Positions 5,119 to 14,193 of a stretch of DNA of 15,334 nucleotides are shown piece by piece. The position numbers and the translations under genes were made by a program. The DNA comes from an uncultured Desulfovibrio sp. (GTDB taxonomy: Bacteria > Desulfobacterota > Desulfovibrionia > Desulfovibrionales > Desulfovibrionaceae), in the NCBI GenBank assembly GCA_945871415.1, contig CAMBWG010000012.1, forward strand, positions 1-15,334, read 5' to 3'. Numbering within the stretch: the stretch's first letter is position 1; each line of letters opens with the position of its first letter. The notes beneath the pieces are model-generated. The model was not told where the DNA came from. It did not search any database and saw only the letters and a list, made by a program, of their open reading frames with translations.

Positions 5119-5877
5119 CTACTTCACGGGCGGCGCGGGACGCACGTCCGTGTCGTCCACATCGACCACATCCTCGGTATCGTCAGCCGGAGCCGCCGGG
5201 CTTTCCGGATTTTCTGGCGGCGCGGCCGGCGGGAGAGCCGGGGAGTCCGTCAGCTGATAGCCGCCGCCGGGCAGGGCCTCAAGCCCCTGACCGGAGGGCG
5301 CCAGCGGGACGCTGTTCTTACTGACGAGGACAATGCCCGTCTTTTCAAGGACTTCCCTCCGGAAAGCGTATTCCTGCTCCATTTGACGATGACGAAAAAC
5401 AAAAAACAGACGCCCCAGATAGCCCACGGCAAGGAAAGCGGCGGCGCCGCCCACGAACCACGGCACATAGGGTGTCAGCGCGCCGCCCGCAAGGCGCACG
5501 GCTTCCCAGAAATCTCCGAGGAAGATCATGGCCGCGCCCAGCAACAGCAGGCAGACCAGCAGCACGACTACCGGCGCATGGCGGACACAGGCATAAAAGC
5601 GCCGGACGCGCTGCGGCACCAGATTGGCATCCGGGGCATCCGGCGCGGCCTCCACCGAACCGTCCAGCGCCTTGCTCAGCACCAGACTGGAAAGCTGCAA
5701 CAGCAGAAAGAGAGCCACGGGCGCAACAACCGCGCCGACGATCCAGCCCAGCCAGGGGAACTGCACCACCGGCGTTCCGCCGGGAACGGCGGGCTCGGCC
5801 CGCATGATGCCGCAAAGCATGGCCACCACAGCCACGGCCAGTTCCAGCAGAACGACCGCAATGAACATATACCACAT
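5119..5877 (-). CDS. Four-helix membrane protein of unknown function
   Basis: I do not recognise this family. From the chosen ATG (5877) it is 252 residues. Predicted membrane helices are at about 2-24, 40-66, 101-121 and 138-161. A short cytoplasmic-looking stretch rich in basic residues follows (FRHRQMEQEYAFRREVLEK). The C-terminal tail from about 212 is rich in Pro, Ala and Asp (PPAAPPENP; DDTEDVVDVDDTD) and probably disordered. The frame stays open upstream to an ATG at 6021. That start overlaps the -10 box of a good minus-strand promoter (6020-6048), whose transcript would begin near 6013, and the extra 48 residues look unstructured. AAGGA four bases before 5877 supports the shorter form. 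The gene ends before a minus-strand terminator at 4899-4941 and stands alone, divergent from the epimerase gene. That it is expressed is inferred from the promoter, coding bias and terminator. Confidence 0.75.
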   Translation of the reverse strand: MWYMFIAVVLLELAVAVVAMLCGIMRAEPAVPGGTPVVQFPWLGWIVGAVVAPVALFLLLQLSSLVLSKALDGSVEAAPDAPDANLVPQRVRRFYACVRHAPVVVLLVCLLLLGAAMIFLGDFWEAVRLAGGALTPYVPWFVGGAAAFLAVGYLGRLFFVFRHRQMEQEYAFRREVLEKTGIVLVSKNSVPLAPSGQGLEALPGGGYQLTDSPALPPAAPPENPESPAAPADDTEDVVDVDDTDVRPAPPVK

Positions 5878-6019
5878 GGCGTCCTTTTTAGGATCGGAAC
5901 GATACAAACGGGACGCCGGACGCGCAGAACTCCAGCCCGCGTCGGCACGCATGCCGTGGGACGGCAGGGAACTTTTATCCAAGCTGCTACCCTCGCAAAA
6001 GGTTGATACGAACATGCTC

Positions 6020-6048
6020 ATAATAGCCGCCTTGCCCGCCCCTCACAA
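6020..6048 (-). promoter_or_regulatory. Sigma70-like promoter for the minus-strand membrane-protein gene
   Basis: On the minus strand, TTGTGA (plus-strand 6043-6048) and TATTAT (6020-6025) are 17 bp apart, matching consensus at 4/6 and 5/6. The start of transcription would be near 6013, giving a leader of about 135 bases before the ATG at 5877. That leader contains overlapping short inverted repeats (CGGCA/TGCCG at 5943-5956 and TGCCG/CGGCA at 5952-5966) that could form alternative hairpins. Confidence 0.5.
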
Positions 6049-9397: not shown

Positions 9398-9430
9398 ATT
9401 TTCCTGTCATCCGGCACACCAGATATGCTT

Positions 9431-9444
9431 ATGCCCCGGGGCAT
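9431..9444. promoter_or_regulatory. 14-bp perfect palindrome upstream of the methyltransferase gene
   Basis: ATGCCCCGGGGCAT is a perfect palindrome with no spacer, 18 bases before the ATG at 9463. A weak -10-like TATGCT (9424-9429) lies just upstream, so the palindrome would cover the transcription start. It could be a binding site for a dimeric repressor. A transcript hairpin is less likely, since there is no loop. Confidence 0.35.
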
Positions 9445-9462
9445 CCCATTCAGGATCTTATC

Positions 9463-10278
9463 ATGCACTCACAGGCCCTGACGGAAAGCCGCGACGCACG
9501 ACAGCGTTTTCCTGCGGGACTTCTGCAACCCGAAGGTTGCGCCCGTTTCGGTATGGACGCCCTGCTGCTGGCTGCCTTTGCGGCCCGCAGCCTGCATGGA
9601 CTTTCTCCGGCGGGACGTGCGCCGGTTCTGGAGCTGGGCTGCGGTGTCGGCGCGGCACTGCTGACTGTCGCTCTGCTGGAAGAAAATATTACGGCGCTGG
9701 GAGTGGAACACAACCCGGAACTGACGCAGGCGGCGGAGGAAAATATTCTTCGGCTGGGCCTGGCGGGCAGACTCCATGTGCTGCGCGGCACACTGCCAGC
9801 CGGTGAATGCCTGCGCCGCTGCCGGGACTGGCTGGCCGACCAGCCGTCAGGGAAACAGGGGGCGGCGCTGGTTCTTGCGAACCCACCCTACTGGATGCGT
9901 CGTGAAGGCCGGACATCCTCCCGTGCGCTTGTGGAAACGGCGCGACGCGACACCGACACGACACTGGACGCCTTCTGTCTGAGCGCTGCCGCACTGACAC
10001 GACACAAGGGATACTTCTGTTGCATTTATGATGCCCGCATGCTGCCCAGACTGTTTGAAGCCTGTGCCCGCCATCGCCTGGGTATCCGACGTCTGTTGCC
10101 GGTGCACCCCCGCAAGGGACAGCCTGCGGGACGAATTCTTCTGGAAGCCCGCAAGGGAGCCGCCCACGAATTACACATAGAAGAAGCCCTCTACCTGCAC
10201 CCCTCCAATGCGGAAGAAAATGTGCGCTGGACCCCGGAGGCTCTTCAATTTTGTCCCTTTCTTGGGAGACCGTCATGA
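9463..10278 (+). CDS. TrmN6-like class I methyltransferase (predicted N6-adenine)
   Basis: A 271-residue Rossmann-fold SAM methyltransferase. The N-terminal FPAGLLQPEGCARFGMDALLL matches the start of tRNA1(Val) A37 N6-methyltransferases (TrmN6/YfiC). The SAM loop is LELGCGVGA (59-63). The catalytic motif NPPY is at 140-143, typical of enzymes that methylate an exocyclic amino group of adenine. The ATG is chosen for AGGA (9452-9455) seven bases upstream; longer versions would run back through the terminator at 9365-9397. The stop overlaps the start of the EndoQ-helicase gene as ATGA, so the two are translationally coupled. The RNA target is the family default. Because of its partner, a DNA target cannot be excluded from sequence alone. 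It is slightly longer than E. coli TrmN6. Confidence 0.85.
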   Translation: MHSQALTESRDARQRFPAGLLQPEGCARFGMDALLLAAFAARSLHGLSPAGRAPVLELGCGVGAALLTVALLEENITALGVEHNPELTQAAEENILRLGLAGRLHVLRGTLPAGECLRRCRDWLADQPSGKQGAALVLANPPYWMRREGRTSSRALVETARRDTDTTLDAFCLSAAALTRHKGYFCCIYDARMLPRLFEACARHRLGIRRLLPVHPRKGQPAGRILLEARKGAAHELHIEEALYLHPSNAEENVRWTPEALQFCPFLGRPS

Positions 10279-13200
10279 GCGTTATCGCCGATCTGCATAT
10301 TCATTCCCGCTTTTCCCGTGCCACCAGCAAGCAACTCACGCCTCGACATCTGGCGGCATGGGCGCAATGCAAGGGCATCCATATCCTTGGAACAGGAGAC
10401 TTCACACACCCGCAATGGCGCACAGAATTACGCGAACAGCTTACACTTGATGAAGAGAGTGTTTTTTACAAACTTAATGTTCCACATGAAACGTTGGATT
10501 TCATGCAAGACACACCACAACCAAAAAACTCGGAACCACTCTTTTGTCTGCAAACAGAAATCAGCTCAATCTACAAGCGTGGTGGAAAAACACGCAAAGT
10601 CCACAACCTTGTTTTTGTGCCCACTCTGGAGGATGCGGATAAACTTTCGCAACGACTGGCTCATATCGGCAACCTCGCTTCCGACGGCCGTCCCATCCTT
10701 GGCCTCGACTCCCATGATCTGCTGGAAATTGTGCTGGAGACTTCTCCGGATGCAATCCTGATTCCCGCCCATATCTGGACGCCCTGGTTTTCTCTCTTCG
10801 GTTCCAAATCCGGCTTTGATCATATCGAGGAATGCTTCGGGGATCTGTCCCCGCATATCTTTGCACTGGAAACAGGGTTGTCCTCAGACCCAGCCATGAA
10901 TCGTCTTGTCAGCGCCCTTGACGGCTACGCGCTTATTTCCAATTCCGACGCCCACTCCGGAGCCAACCTTGGCCGAGAAGCCAACCTCTTTGACGGTCGC
11001 GTCACCTACCATTCCATGTTTGCCGCACTGCGCGCCGCGGCGCAACGTTCGCCTGCGGACTCTCCGGACTGCCGCTTCCTCGGGACCATGGAGTTCTATC
11101 CCGAAGAAGGAAAATACCATCTTGACGGACATCGTGCCTGCGGCGTTGTTCTCGAACCTGAAGAGGCCCATAAGCTCAACGATATCTGCCCGGTCTGCGG
11201 CAAGCCGCTGACCATTGGCGTACTTCACCGCGTCTGGGAGCTTGCTGACCGCGACGCGGCTCCCGCGCTCCCCGCCGAGCCGGAAGCCCGTCCTCTGATT
11301 CCTCTGCCGGAGCTGATAGGAGAAATTCTTGGCGTTGGCAGCGGCTCCCGCAAGGTACAGCAACGTTATGCCGAACTGCTCCGCAATCTGGGTCCGGATC
11401 TCGACATCCTCTGCCGCATGCCCGAAGATCGCATCCGGGCGCACTGGGAGCCTCTCGGCGAAGCCGTCGCCCGCATGCGTCGCGGCGATGTCATACGACA
11501 GGGCGGCTATGACGGCGAATACGGCGTCGTGCGCGTCTTCAGCCCCGAAGAGCAGGCCGGGCTGGGCGGCTCAGCCAGACGCGCCTCTCTCCTCTCACCC
11601 CGCAAAGCCGCAACACCCGTCACCGTCACCCGCCGCAGGGCCCCGGTACAGCCCGCCGCAGCTCCAGCGACGGTTACGGCTCCCGCCGTCTTTGCCTTCT
11701 CGGCGGATCAGCAGACAGCCTTAGAGGCGGGACCGCAGCCCGTGCTTGTGCTGGCGGGTCCCGGCGCGGGCAAAACCCGCGTTCTTGTGGGACGTCTGCA
11801 ACGGCTGCTCTCACAGGGGCTGCCGCCGGAATCTCTGCTGGCGCTGACCTTTACCCGCCGCGCCGCTGCGGAAATGCGCGAACGTCTTGCGGCTCAGACG
11901 GAAGGGACGCTGCCCCGTTGCGACACCCTCCACGGCTATGCCTGGAGTCTGCTTCACAAGGCGCTGCCGGAATGCGTTCTGCTTCCCGAAGCCCCGGCCC
12001 GCGCGCTCTTCAATGCCGCCAATGCGACTCTCCCCGCCGCGGAGCGCCGCCGCCTCTGGGAAAGCCTGCAACTTGCGCGCGAACAGGGCCGCGCCCTGGA
12101 GGAGCTGCCTCCCGAGGCTGCGGAAGCAGCCCGCCGCTATTGTGACCGCAAGCAGCAGGGGGAGCATCTGCGAGTGGATTACGCGGACTTGCCCGGCTGG
12201 CTTCTGCTGCACCGCTCCGGCCCGCACACGATCGGGGAAGCGGAAGCCGCCGCCTCATGGCTGCCGCCCCGCCTGCGGGAAGCCGCCGCCGCAGCGCCCG
12301 GCACTGTGCCGACGCAGGTGCTTGTGGACGAAGCGCAGGACCTTTCCCCCATACAGCTTGCGCTGATCCGGGCCCTGCTGCCGCCCGACGGCAGCGGTTT
12401 CTTCGGCATCGGCGATCCGGATCAGGCAATCTACGGTTTCCGCGGCGCGGGAGGACAGAGTGAAAGTGTCTTCCAGCGCTGCTGGCCCTCGTTGCAGGTG
12501 CTGCGTCTCGGTATCAGTTACCGGGCAAGTCAGGCGGTTCTCGACATGGCGCAACGCCTGCTTCAGGGGCACGGCCATTGCGGTTCTCTTACCGCCGCAC
12601 AACCGCAGACAGCGTTCCTTCACCTCTTTGCAGCTTCGGATGAACAGGCCGAAGCCCGCTGGATAGCCCGCCGTACGGTTGCTCTGCTCGGCGCAACGTC
12701 CCACAGTCTGCTTGACGCCGCCCAACAGACAGAACTGGACGGCACGCTTTCGCCGGGCGATATTGCCGTACTGGTTCGCCTTCGCGCACAGATTCCGCCT
12801 ATCCGCGCCGCGCTGGAACATGCCGGTATCCCCTGCGCCGCCCCGGAAAGCGCCCCCTTCTGGCAGGATCCGCTCTGTGCCGCCGTTCTACGGACTCTCT
12901 GCGGCCTGTCACAGGCTGACACGACGGAAGAAGAAGTGCTCCACCTCCCGCCGCTTCCCCGCTGCAACGGCAGCCTGCCGTCCCCTGCGGCCCTTACGGA
13001 CTGGCTTGCCGCACACGCGGGCATTGATCCCGCGCTTCTTTCCGGCGGGCCGTGGCAGGAGCTGCTCCGCCTCCGCGAAGATTGCGGAAGCTGGCCCGCG
13101 CTTCTGGAGCGCATTGCGCTCTTGCAGGAACGCGATCTTGTCCGCAGCAAGGCCGAGCATGTGCAGCTCATGACGCTGCACGCCTCCAAGGGACTGGAGT

Positions 13201-13502
13201 TCAAAGCCGTCTTTCTCCCCGGTCTGGAAGAAGGGCTGCTGCCCCTCCGCCGTGCCGCACTGGGAATGCACGCGGAGGATGGCGCCGAAGCCCCGCTTGA
13301 AGAAGAACGCCGTCTGCTCTATGTCGGCCTGACGCGCGCCGCCTGCGCGATCTTCGCCAGCCATTGCGCGCATCGCCGTCTCTACGGCAAGGAGCTGCGT
13401 CTGCCGCCCTCCTCCTTCCTGCCGCTGGTGCAGGACTGCTGCCGCGTCACAACGCTTAAGCCCCATACCCGGCGGGAGCAGCAGTCGCTTTCGCTGCTGT
13501 AA
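10275..13502 (+). CDS. Endonuclease Q-like PHP nuclease fused to UvrD/Rep-type helicase
   Basis: A 1075-residue fusion. Residues 1 to about 422 match endonuclease Q (TIGR00375 type), which in characterised cases nicks DNA 5' of deaminated bases. Visible features are PHP metal motifs DLHIHS (D6, H8, H10), GTGDFTHP (D42), AHIWTPWFS and SNSDAHSG (D225, H227), and the EndoQ zinc region RACGVVL with CPVCGKPLTIGVLHRVWELADR (C289, C305, C308). A Pro/Ala/Arg-rich linker (about 423-478) leads to a complete SF1A helicase: Walker A AGPGAGKT (494-501), Ia LTFTRRAAAEM, DEAQD (685-689), GDPDQAIYGFRGA, GISYRASQ, LMTLHASKGLEFKAVFLPG and YVGLTRA (R1021). All motor motifs look intact, so ATP-driven unwinding and nicking may act together in DNA repair or defence. 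The ATG at 10275 overlaps the methyltransferase stop, with GGGAG six bases upstream. Bases 10441-10620 are only about 39% GC. Confidence 0.92.
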   Translation: MSVIADLHIHSRFSRATSKQLTPRHLAAWAQCKGIHILGTGDFTHPQWRTELREQLTLDEESVFYKLNVPHETLDFMQDTPQPKNSEPLFCLQTEISSIYKRGGKTRKVHNLVFVPTLEDADKLSQRLAHIGNLASDGRPILGLDSHDLLEIVLETSPDAILIPAHIWTPWFSLFGSKSGFDHIEECFGDLSPHIFALETGLSSDPAMNRLVSALDGYALISNSDAHSGANLGREANLFDGRVTYHSMFAALRAAAQRSPADSPDCRFLGTMEFYPEEGKYHLDGHRACGVVLEPEEAHKLNDICPVCGKPLTIGVLHRVWELADRDAAPALPAEPEARPLIPLPELIGEILGVGSGSRKVQQRYAELLRNLGPDLDILCRMPEDRIRAHWEPLGEAVARMRRGDVIRQGGYDGEYGVVRVFSPEEQAGLGGSARRASLLSPRKAATPVTVTRRRAPVQPAAAPATVTAPAVFAFSADQQTALEAGPQPVLVLAGPGAGKTRVLVGRLQRLLSQGLPPESLLALTFTRRAAAEMRERLAAQTEGTLPRCDTLHGYAWSLLHKALPECVLLPEAPARALFNAANATLPAAERRRLWESLQLAREQGRALEELPPEAAEAARRYCDRKQQGEHLRVDYADLPGWLLLHRSGPHTIGEAEAAASWLPPRLREAAAAAPGTVPTQVLVDEAQDLSPIQLALIRALLPPDGSGFFGIGDPDQAIYGFRGAGGQSESVFQRCWPSLQVLRLGISYRASQAVLDMAQRLLQGHGHCGSLTAAQPQTAFLHLFAASDEQAEARWIARRTVALLGATSHSLLDAAQQTELDGTLSPGDIAVLVRLRAQIPPIRAALEHAGIPCAAPESAPFWQDPLCAAVLRTLCGLSQADTTEEEVLHLPPLPRCNGSLPSPAALTDWLAAHAGIDPALLSGGPWQELLRLREDCGSWPALLERIALLQERDLVRSKAEHVQLMTLHASKGLEFKAVFLPGLEEGLLPLRRAALGMHAEDGAEAPLEEERRLLYVGLTRAACAIFASHCAHRRLYGKELRLPPSSFLPLVQDCCRVTTLKPHTRREQQSLSLL

Positions 13503-13938: not shown

Positions 13939-14193
13939 TCAGTCGAGCCAGGTATCGTCTTCCAGAACCTTATAGCCGCGCACCATCAAGTAACGCACCC
14001 CGTCCAGTTCATCCACAATACCCGTCACTTCAACGGGCACGCTGACCTCGTCGTCGAGATCGACGCCCGCGCCGCGCGGCACGATACGGTATTCTTCATC
14101 ATCCTGCTGGCGCACCGCCACACGGGCCTGACGTGGATCGGCTGCCCGGGGAACGGGCGTCACATACCCCTTGATGGTCATCAGATTGCTCAT
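13939..14193 (-). CDS. Small acidic protein of unknown function (84 aa)
   Basis: I do not recognise this protein. Its 84 residues contain no membrane segment, signal peptide or cysteine. Alternating hydrophobic residues (MTIKGYVTPV; SVPVEVTGIVDELDGVRYLMVRGYKVL) suggest a compact beta-barrel such as an OB-type fold, and it is rich in Asp/Glu (QQDDEEYR; DLDDEVSVPVE). A clean stop, terminators downstream (13708-13778), a candidate promoter (14332-14360) and the protein-like composition support a real gene. The ribosome-binding sequence is weak (AAGAG close to the ATG). It lies 215 bp downstream of the NapH-like gene on the same strand, so they could share a transcript or be separate. Function unknown. 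Confidence 0.75.
   Translation of the reverse strand: MSNLMTIKGYVTPVPRAADPRQARVAVRQQDDEEYRIVPRGAGVDLDDEVSVPVEVTGIVDELDGVRYLMVRGYKVLEDDTWLD

What the first reader, a model, noticed from the sequence alone, without database searches (positions are those of the whole stretch)
10275..13502. Endonuclease Q fused to a complete UvrD-type helicase
Seen: PHP metal motifs and the EndoQ zinc region in residues 1-422, then all SF1A helicase motifs (K500, DEAQD 685-689, R1021), joined by a flexible linker. Known: stand-alone EndoQ nicks DNA 5' of uracil, hypoxanthine and related lesions, mostly in archaea and a few bacteria. Inference: one polypeptide could nick at a damaged base and unwind from the nick, a self-contained alternative to glycosylase-initiated repair, or it could attack foreign DNA containing modified bases.
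Basis: partly seen in the sequence, partly recalled or inferred. Interest (0 to 1): 0.7.

Follow-up and report, generated by a model that had tools for sequence, protein, structure and literature searches.

The report
DNA-damage nickase fused to DNA-unwinding motor
This bacterium has a gene for one long protein that joins an enzyme predicted to nick DNA beside damaged (deaminated) bases to a motor that unwinds DNA, and most sampled members of its class have such a gene while lacking the usual starter enzymes of that repair, so it may be how they remove uracil from their DNA.

The parts
10275..13502 (+). EndoQ-UvrD fusion gene, 1075 aa, ATG start; its first four bases (ATGA) overlap the stop of the upstream gene
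   Evidence: full-length relatives
10275..11561 (+). EndoQ-type nuclease (residues 1-429): D6, H8, H10, E95, H110, H166, SDAH 224-227; pocket G201, S203
11130..11198 (+). Zinc-binding-like region H286-x2-C289 ... C305-x2-C308 (first ligand His instead of Cys)
11568..11690 (+). Disordered linker (residues 432-472); where many relatives outside the class keep an internal QxxLF motif, this one has only RRASLL (435-440)
   Evidence: pLDDT under 50; alignment; motif counts
11691..13466 (+). UvrD-type SF1A helicase (residues 473-1064): Q479, GPGAGKT 495-501, DEAQD 685-689, GDPDQAIYGFRG 713-724, ASKGLEF 970-976, VGLTRA 1017-1022
13479..13499 (+). C-terminal sliding-clamp-binding-like motif QQSLSLL (residues 1069-1075)
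9418..10278 (+). Upstream methyltransferase (weak TrmN6-like), overlapping by ATGA; neighbour, not part of the proposed mechanism
   Evidence: a homologue lies upstream of the fusion in 3 of 4 same-genus loci read (in L130 with a gap of about 1.8 kb), not hit in the 1.41 Mb genome

Best explanation
A clamp-tethered nick-and-unwind repair enzyme for deaminated bases. The N-terminal EndoQ-type domain flips uracil, hypoxanthine or an abasic site into its pocket and nicks the strand just 5' of it, leaving a 3'-OH and the lesion on the 5' end of the downstream strand. The linked SF1A helicase loads at that nick and, moving 3'-to-5' on the intact strand, peels off the lesion-bearing 5' flap. The C-terminal motif binds the sliding clamp, which brings in polymerase for refilling; a flap nuclease and ligase finish. 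Shown here: domain anatomy, kept residues, distribution, motif enrichment. Inferred: every biochemical step, helicase polarity, clamp binding and the order of events. The nick chemistry is taken from studied EndoQs.
For: Kept catalytic and pocket residues and fold. EndoQ activity is reported for Pyrococcus, Methanosarcina and Bacillus pumilus (PMC4357722 and PMC6202378, passages); E76A, H84A and H139A abolish activity, and H139, G169 and S171 hinder normal T and A (PMC8307549, passages). PMC4357722 (passages) proposes strand displacement by a polymerase, or helicase removal together with EndoV, after the nick. The helicase partner is kept: one fusion clade of 91 rows, SH-aLRT 94; separate helicases next to EndoQ score 466-607 bits with the fusion-helicase profile against 325-403 for 21 UvrD/PcrA-type proteins of the class. 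142 of 149 class genomes have a fusion-sized frame, and all 21 of those that I read hold the helicase; UDG 36, EndoV 1, Nfo 68 of 149. Looser clamp pattern in the last 15 residues: 44 of 49 fusions and 20 of 27 unfused EndoQs among named genomes, 0 of 21 UvrD/PcrA; shuffle means 2.0, 0.7, 0.3. Archaeal EndoQ binds PCNA through a C-terminal PIP box and is stimulated by it (PMC4858679, passages).
Against: No activity measured. The shortage of UDG, EndoV and Nfo in the class may go back to one or few ancestral events, so it is not many independent observations; fusion genomes elsewhere keep UDG (63 of 65; 43 of 47). ExoIII is present in 146 of 149 and could handle some lesions; HhH-type glycosylases that may act on uracil were not searched for. 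Among the window's close kin the clamp motif is weaker: strict QxxL[FL] in 36 of 120, looser pattern 45 of 120, though the core [LIM]xL[LFIM] is in 100 of 120; the internal motif is absent from 22 of 22 class loci. Four class genomes seem to lack an intact fusion (G350, G382, G422, G428), so it is not strictly essential; G422 has neither an EndoQ nor a UDG hit.
Confidence: 0.6

Rival explanations
1. The EndoQ half recognises some other lesion or DNA structure (ribonucleotide, mismatch, oxidised pyrimidine), and the protein is a general nick-and-unwind excision enzyme, comparable to a UvrC/UvrD or MutL/UvrD pair in one chain.
For: Most fusion genomes outside the class keep a UDG, so uracil alone does not explain the fusion there; PfuEndoQ also cuts 5-hydroxyuracil, dihydrouracil and AP sites (PMC11354406, passages). 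Six listed genomes of Blautia's phylum (G481, G584, G643, G733, G754, G775) have a second, short EndoQ frame besides a fusion-sized one, which suggests divided labour.
Against: The pocket residues checked are unchanged, and Methanosarcina too keeps UDG and EndoQ side by side (PMC6202378, passages).
Confidence: 0.2
2. An anti-phage enzyme that cuts and unwinds foreign DNA with modified or uracil-containing bases.
For: PADLOC models of GajB and other UvrD-type helicases match the C-terminal half (best 169.5 bits); a review says bacterial EndoQ may take part in antiviral defence (PMC8307549, passage).
Against: EndoQ match in 148 of 149 class genomes; same order of epimerase, U32 and fusion genes in the 4 same-genus loci read, one of them a 1.41 Mb genome; the EndoQ tree largely groups rows by family. 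The PADLOC matches lie in the helicase half, and no GajA-like family was found among the 5 window neighbours scanned.
Confidence: 0.1
3. Two independent activities on one chain by accretion: the helicase works elsewhere and the EndoQ half acts alone, without coupling.
For: A 41-residue disordered linker, of variable length among relatives; five rows in the fusion clade have EndoQ with no helicase seen in the stretch read (L036, L038, L056, L109, L111).
Against: The pair stays joined or adjacent in titles from many phyla, and adjacent unfused helicases score with the fusion helicases rather than with UvrD/PcrA.
Confidence: 0.1

Closest known systems
Endonuclease Q (PfuEndoQ, TkoEndoQ, MacEndoQ, Bacillus pumilus EndoQ)
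   Same: PHP fold, catalytic Glu/His/His, SDAH, pocket Gly/Ser, C-terminal clamp-binding-like motif in many stand-alone forms
   Different: Here fused to a helicase; first zinc ligand His instead of Cys; under the TIGR00375 equivalog cut-off; clamp-like motif after the helicase
UvrD / PcrA / Rep (SF1A helicases)
   Same: Helicase motifs and overall fold; about 22-26% identity in the listed Foldseek rows for UvrD, PcrA and Rep
   Different: Far under the UvrD, PcrA and Rep equivalog cut-offs; each of 34 class genomes also has a stronger, separate UvrD-type match; clamp-like tail, which 0 of 21 class UvrD/PcrA-type proteins show
UV damage endonuclease and other nick-first (alternative excision) repair
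   Same: Single nick 5' of the lesion, then strand removal (PMC4357722, passage)
   Different: Unrelated nuclease fold and no covalently joined helicase (recalled, not tested)
Gabija GajB
   Same: UvrD-type helicase core
   Different: No GajA partner among the 5 neighbours scanned; fused to a PHP nuclease

Membership tests
EndoQ | Catalytic ligands equivalent to Pfu E76, H84, H139 | tested here: met
   E95, H110, H166; 40 of 40 chosen domains; role of these residues from PMC8307549 (passages)
EndoQ | Lesion-pocket residues G169, S171 | tested here: met
   G201, S203; 40 of 40
EndoQ | Four-cysteine zinc site | tested here: inconclusive
   H286, C289, C305, C308; His can bind zinc, metal not modelled
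EndoQ | EndoQ fold over the whole domain | tested here: met
EndoQ | 5' nicking at dU, dI, AP sites | not testable with these tools
   needs an assay
TIGR00375 equivalog (NCBIfam) | Score over the curated cut-off of 326.6 bits | tested here: not met
   154.6 bits; 0 of 297 genomes of the phylum and 2 of 299 of Blautia's phylum pass; a relative of that family, not filed as the equivalog
UvrD / PcrA / Rep equivalogs | Score over the curated cut-offs (911-1168 bits) | tested here: not met
   152-193 bits; a UvrD-like SF1A helicase, not UvrD itself
SF1A (UvrD-like) helicase | Helicase motifs I, II, III, V, VI and fold | tested here: met
   motif names recalled
Sliding-clamp client | C-terminal Q-L-x-L-F type motif | tested here: inconclusive
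   QQSLSLL in this protein is a degenerate form; family-wide enrichment; consensus QLxLF from PMC4549789 (passages)
Sliding-clamp client | Binding to DnaN | not testable with these tools
   needs SPR or pull-down
Gabija | GajA nuclease gene next to GajB | tested here: not met
   5 neighbouring window proteins scanned by Pfam and NCBIfam, none of that kind; the other window genes were not scanned

The most novel reading that the evidence does not exclude
Most of a bacterial class (Desulfovibrionia) repairs deaminated bases without uracil-DNA glycosylase or EndoV, by one clamp-tethered polypeptide that nicks 5' of the lesion and unwinds it away; the same enzyme, as a fusion or split operon, is an overlooked DNA repair pathway spread over many bacterial phyla, gut anaerobes included.
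Probability: 0.4. Interest if true: 0.8.

Novelty: new variant of a known kind. Interest (0 to 1): 0.62.

Why it matters
[quoted passage not shown] A class of anaerobes in which 113 of 149 genomes have no UDG-superfamily hit, but 142 of 149 have a fusion-sized lesion-nickase gene, makes glycosylase-free uracil repair in bacteria directly testable. It would also give one answer to what follows the EndoQ nick, for which the archaeal work offers proposals, and a single-chain, ATP-driven tool for lesion-directed strand opening. Source names seen are 'UvrD-helicase domain-containing protein', 'DNA helicase' or 'uncharacterized protein (TIGR00375 family)', so the nuclease half is easily overlooked.

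Tried and rejected
Idea that the fusion tracks absence of UDG everywhere: rejected. Idea that the fusion is the cell's only UvrD: rejected, all 34 class genomes examined have a stronger UvrD-type match in another frame of 622-899 aa, the window's own at G000:C280. Idea of a fixed operon partner: of 19 neighbourhoods compared, only the 4 same-genus ones share the epimerase and U32 genes next to the fusion. Idea of several independent fusions: the quick trees favour one fusion clade with later losses (6 changes each), though many forks are weak and roots are midpoints. PADLOC defence membership: helicase half only. The clamp motif in bacterial EndoQ is not new: PMC4858679 already notes it for bacterial homologues (passage); what is added here is its place in fusions.

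Literature: 7 library searches. None of the listings or of the passages that I read names an EndoQ-helicase fusion. PMC4357722 draws bacterial EndoQ homologues with total lengths and names Desulfovibrio, in a figure that is not held, so the authors may have seen the fusion. Subscription papers (e.g. Shiraishi 2017, seen only as a cited reference) were not read. Of no paper did I read more than passages.

Limits: one search scored only the 7994 candidates sharing most words and lists 120. One search lists only part of its matches, and in it only frame length, not the helicase, was seen. In the class, too, 142 is a count of frames of 900 aa or more; the helicase half was read in 21 of them. One search dropped 11 duplicates, and L112 (too short) fell out; one search used 80 loci plus 51 chosen of 107 earlier rows; one search dropped pieces under 330 aa or 80 bits, and one of its 21 UvrD/PcrA rows (L242) is a long branch and may be another paralogue; one of its 10 unfused helicases (L186) is a piece of a broken fusion. 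Motif counts use related sequences, so shuffles overstate significance; proteins cut by locus ends are left out. UDG negatives not printed by the tool were taken as those absent from the printed positives (12 gaps, as the tool says).
Full report

Where it lies. The window is one contig of a 79% complete, 435-contig assembly. One same-genus genome has a contig of 3,251,440 bases, the same length as the longest contig of one search hit named Desulfovibrio desulfuricans, so the genus is taken to be Desulfovibrio (inference; class and phylum names follow from it). In the same-genus loci L129, L130 and L131 the order epimerase, U32, methyltransferase, fusion is kept (in L130 with a gap of about 1.8 kb before the fusion); in the 1.41 Mb genome G356 the epimerase, U32 and fusion remain and there is no methyltransferase hit. 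The other loci compared share at most a displaced methyltransferase hit (L136, L137).

How common. In 297 genomes from the window's phylum, 193 have an EndoQ-type match. By my hand count, at least 76 have an open frame of 900 aa or more over it, most others about 400-510 aa; in the 34 distinct long frames outside the class that I read, all 34 hold the helicase. In 149 genomes of the class, 148 have a match and 142 an open frame of 900 or more; 21 of 21 such frames read hold the helicase. Of the other seven class genomes, three are cut by contig ends (G287, G354, G433), two have EndoQ with no helicase in the stretch read (G382, G428), one is broken (G350) and one has no match (G422). In 299 genomes of the phylum of Blautia schinkii (Bacillota by title), 155 have a match, and at least 32 genomes in the listed rows have a frame of 1000 or more (hand count). 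Of 80 loci kept from named genomes, 51 are fused (one of them, L186, broken), 9 have a helicase gene next door, 18 show none and 2 are cut.

History. With Desulfobacterota alone, a branch with SH-aLRT 98 separates 64 rows that hold all the fused ones from 43 that hold none, with 6 changes. With 131 rows from many phyla, all 84 fused rows lie in one group of 91 (SH-aLRT 94; 6 changes), with 4 split, 2 lone and 1 cut row. Titles of fused rows give 11 phyla (Bacillota, Thermodesulfobacteriota, Myxococcota, Chloroflexota, Fibrobacterota, Elusimicrobiota, Gemmatimonadota, Bacteroidota, Spirochaetota, Latescibacterota, Glassiibacteriota) plus candidate division KSB1; most are metagenome bins and may be misassigned. 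Split pairs lie in the neighbouring group (L151, L161, L164, L225, L031/L089), in L181 near the midpoint root, and inside the fusion group (L174, L180, L189, L227). The split helicases long enough to score give 466-607 bits with the fusion-helicase profile, against 325-403 for 21 class UvrD/PcrA-type proteins, which form one side of a branch of weak support (65). The link with this helicase may therefore precede the fusion.

Repair context. In the class: UDG superfamily 36 of 149 (two strong, G371 and G319, then G431 at E 1e-22, the rest 2e-18 or weaker), EndoV 1 of 149 (G371, which also has a strong UDG), Nfo 68 of 149 over cut-off (74 with any match), ExoIII 146 of 149. In the window's genus: 38 of 38 fusion-sized frame, UDG 3, EndoV 0, Nfo 0, ExoIII 37. 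In the rest of the phylum sample 265 of 285 have a UDG, against 0 of 12 in the window's family in that same sample. Among carriers of a long frame outside the family 63 of 65 have a UDG (hand count; the two without are G140 and G292), and 43 of 47 among genomes of 47 of the 51 fused named loci. The fusion is thus not a response to UDG loss in general; it may have allowed that loss in this class. Because that loss is probably shared by descent, it is few observations and not 107.

Clamp motif. Many stand-alone EndoQs end in QLKLF, QMSLF, QQSLF and the like. Counts in the last 15 residues with the looser pattern: unfused 38 of 47 (phylum) and 20 of 27 (named genomes); fused 20 of 33 (phylum, class included), 44 of 49 (named genomes), and 45 of 120 close kin; UvrD/PcrA control 0 of 21. 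Shuffle means are 1.4, 0.7, 1.2, 2.0, 6.0 and 0.3. The strict pattern QxxL[FL] gives 36, 19, 19, 42, 36 and 0. A QxxL[FLY] motif survives within 40 residues after the EndoQ domain in 20 of 34 phylum fusions outside the class and 31 of 50 in named genomes, but in 0 of 22 class loci and 4 of 119 close kin. Close kin keep the core [LIM]xL[LFIM] in the last 12 residues in 100 of 120 (shuffle mean 5.4). PMC4858679 (passages) shows PCNA binding by archaeal EndoQ and notes the motif in bacterial homologues; its place at the end of the helicase, and the two-motif state, were not found in the passages read.

Mechanism. EndoQ leaves the lesion at the 5' end of the downstream strand. A 3'-to-5' motor that loads on the intact strand at the nick would move towards the lesion side and strip it off, while the clamp keeps polymerase at hand. 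This gives the helicase a clear job and would explain selection for joining the two; polarity and loading are inferred from the UvrD family, not shown.

Verdict. Real, well conserved, new as a described system as far as the searched library shows, built of two known families: a new variant of a known kind, with a directly testable claim about uracil repair in a whole class.

Noticed in passing
class Desulfovibrionia: Most genomes have no UDG-superfamily and no EndoV hit; the window's genus also has no Nfo hit (0 of 38).
   Followed up: partly
L109 (G382), L111 (G428), L036, L038, L056: EndoQ-type genes inside the fusion clade with no helicase in the stretch read.
   Followed up: partly
L037: EndoQ and helicase frames in the same frame separated by a single stop codon; a near relative (L074) has the uninterrupted fusion.
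   Followed up: no
L087, C-terminal end: A fusion with an extra C-terminal stretch holding a CxxC, thioredoxin-like by eye, beyond its QMKLF motif.
   Followed up: no
genomes G481, G584, G643, G733, G754, G775: A short EndoQ frame and a long fusion-sized frame in the same genome.
   Followed up: no
window 9418-10278 and 10275: Stop of the methyltransferase gene overlaps the start of the fusion gene (ATGA), suggesting translational coupling.
   Followed up: partly
window 5119-6021 (-) and 13939-14193 (-): Two genes with no Pfam or NCBIfam match; each has a relative near the fusion in at least one same-genus locus.
   Followed up: no
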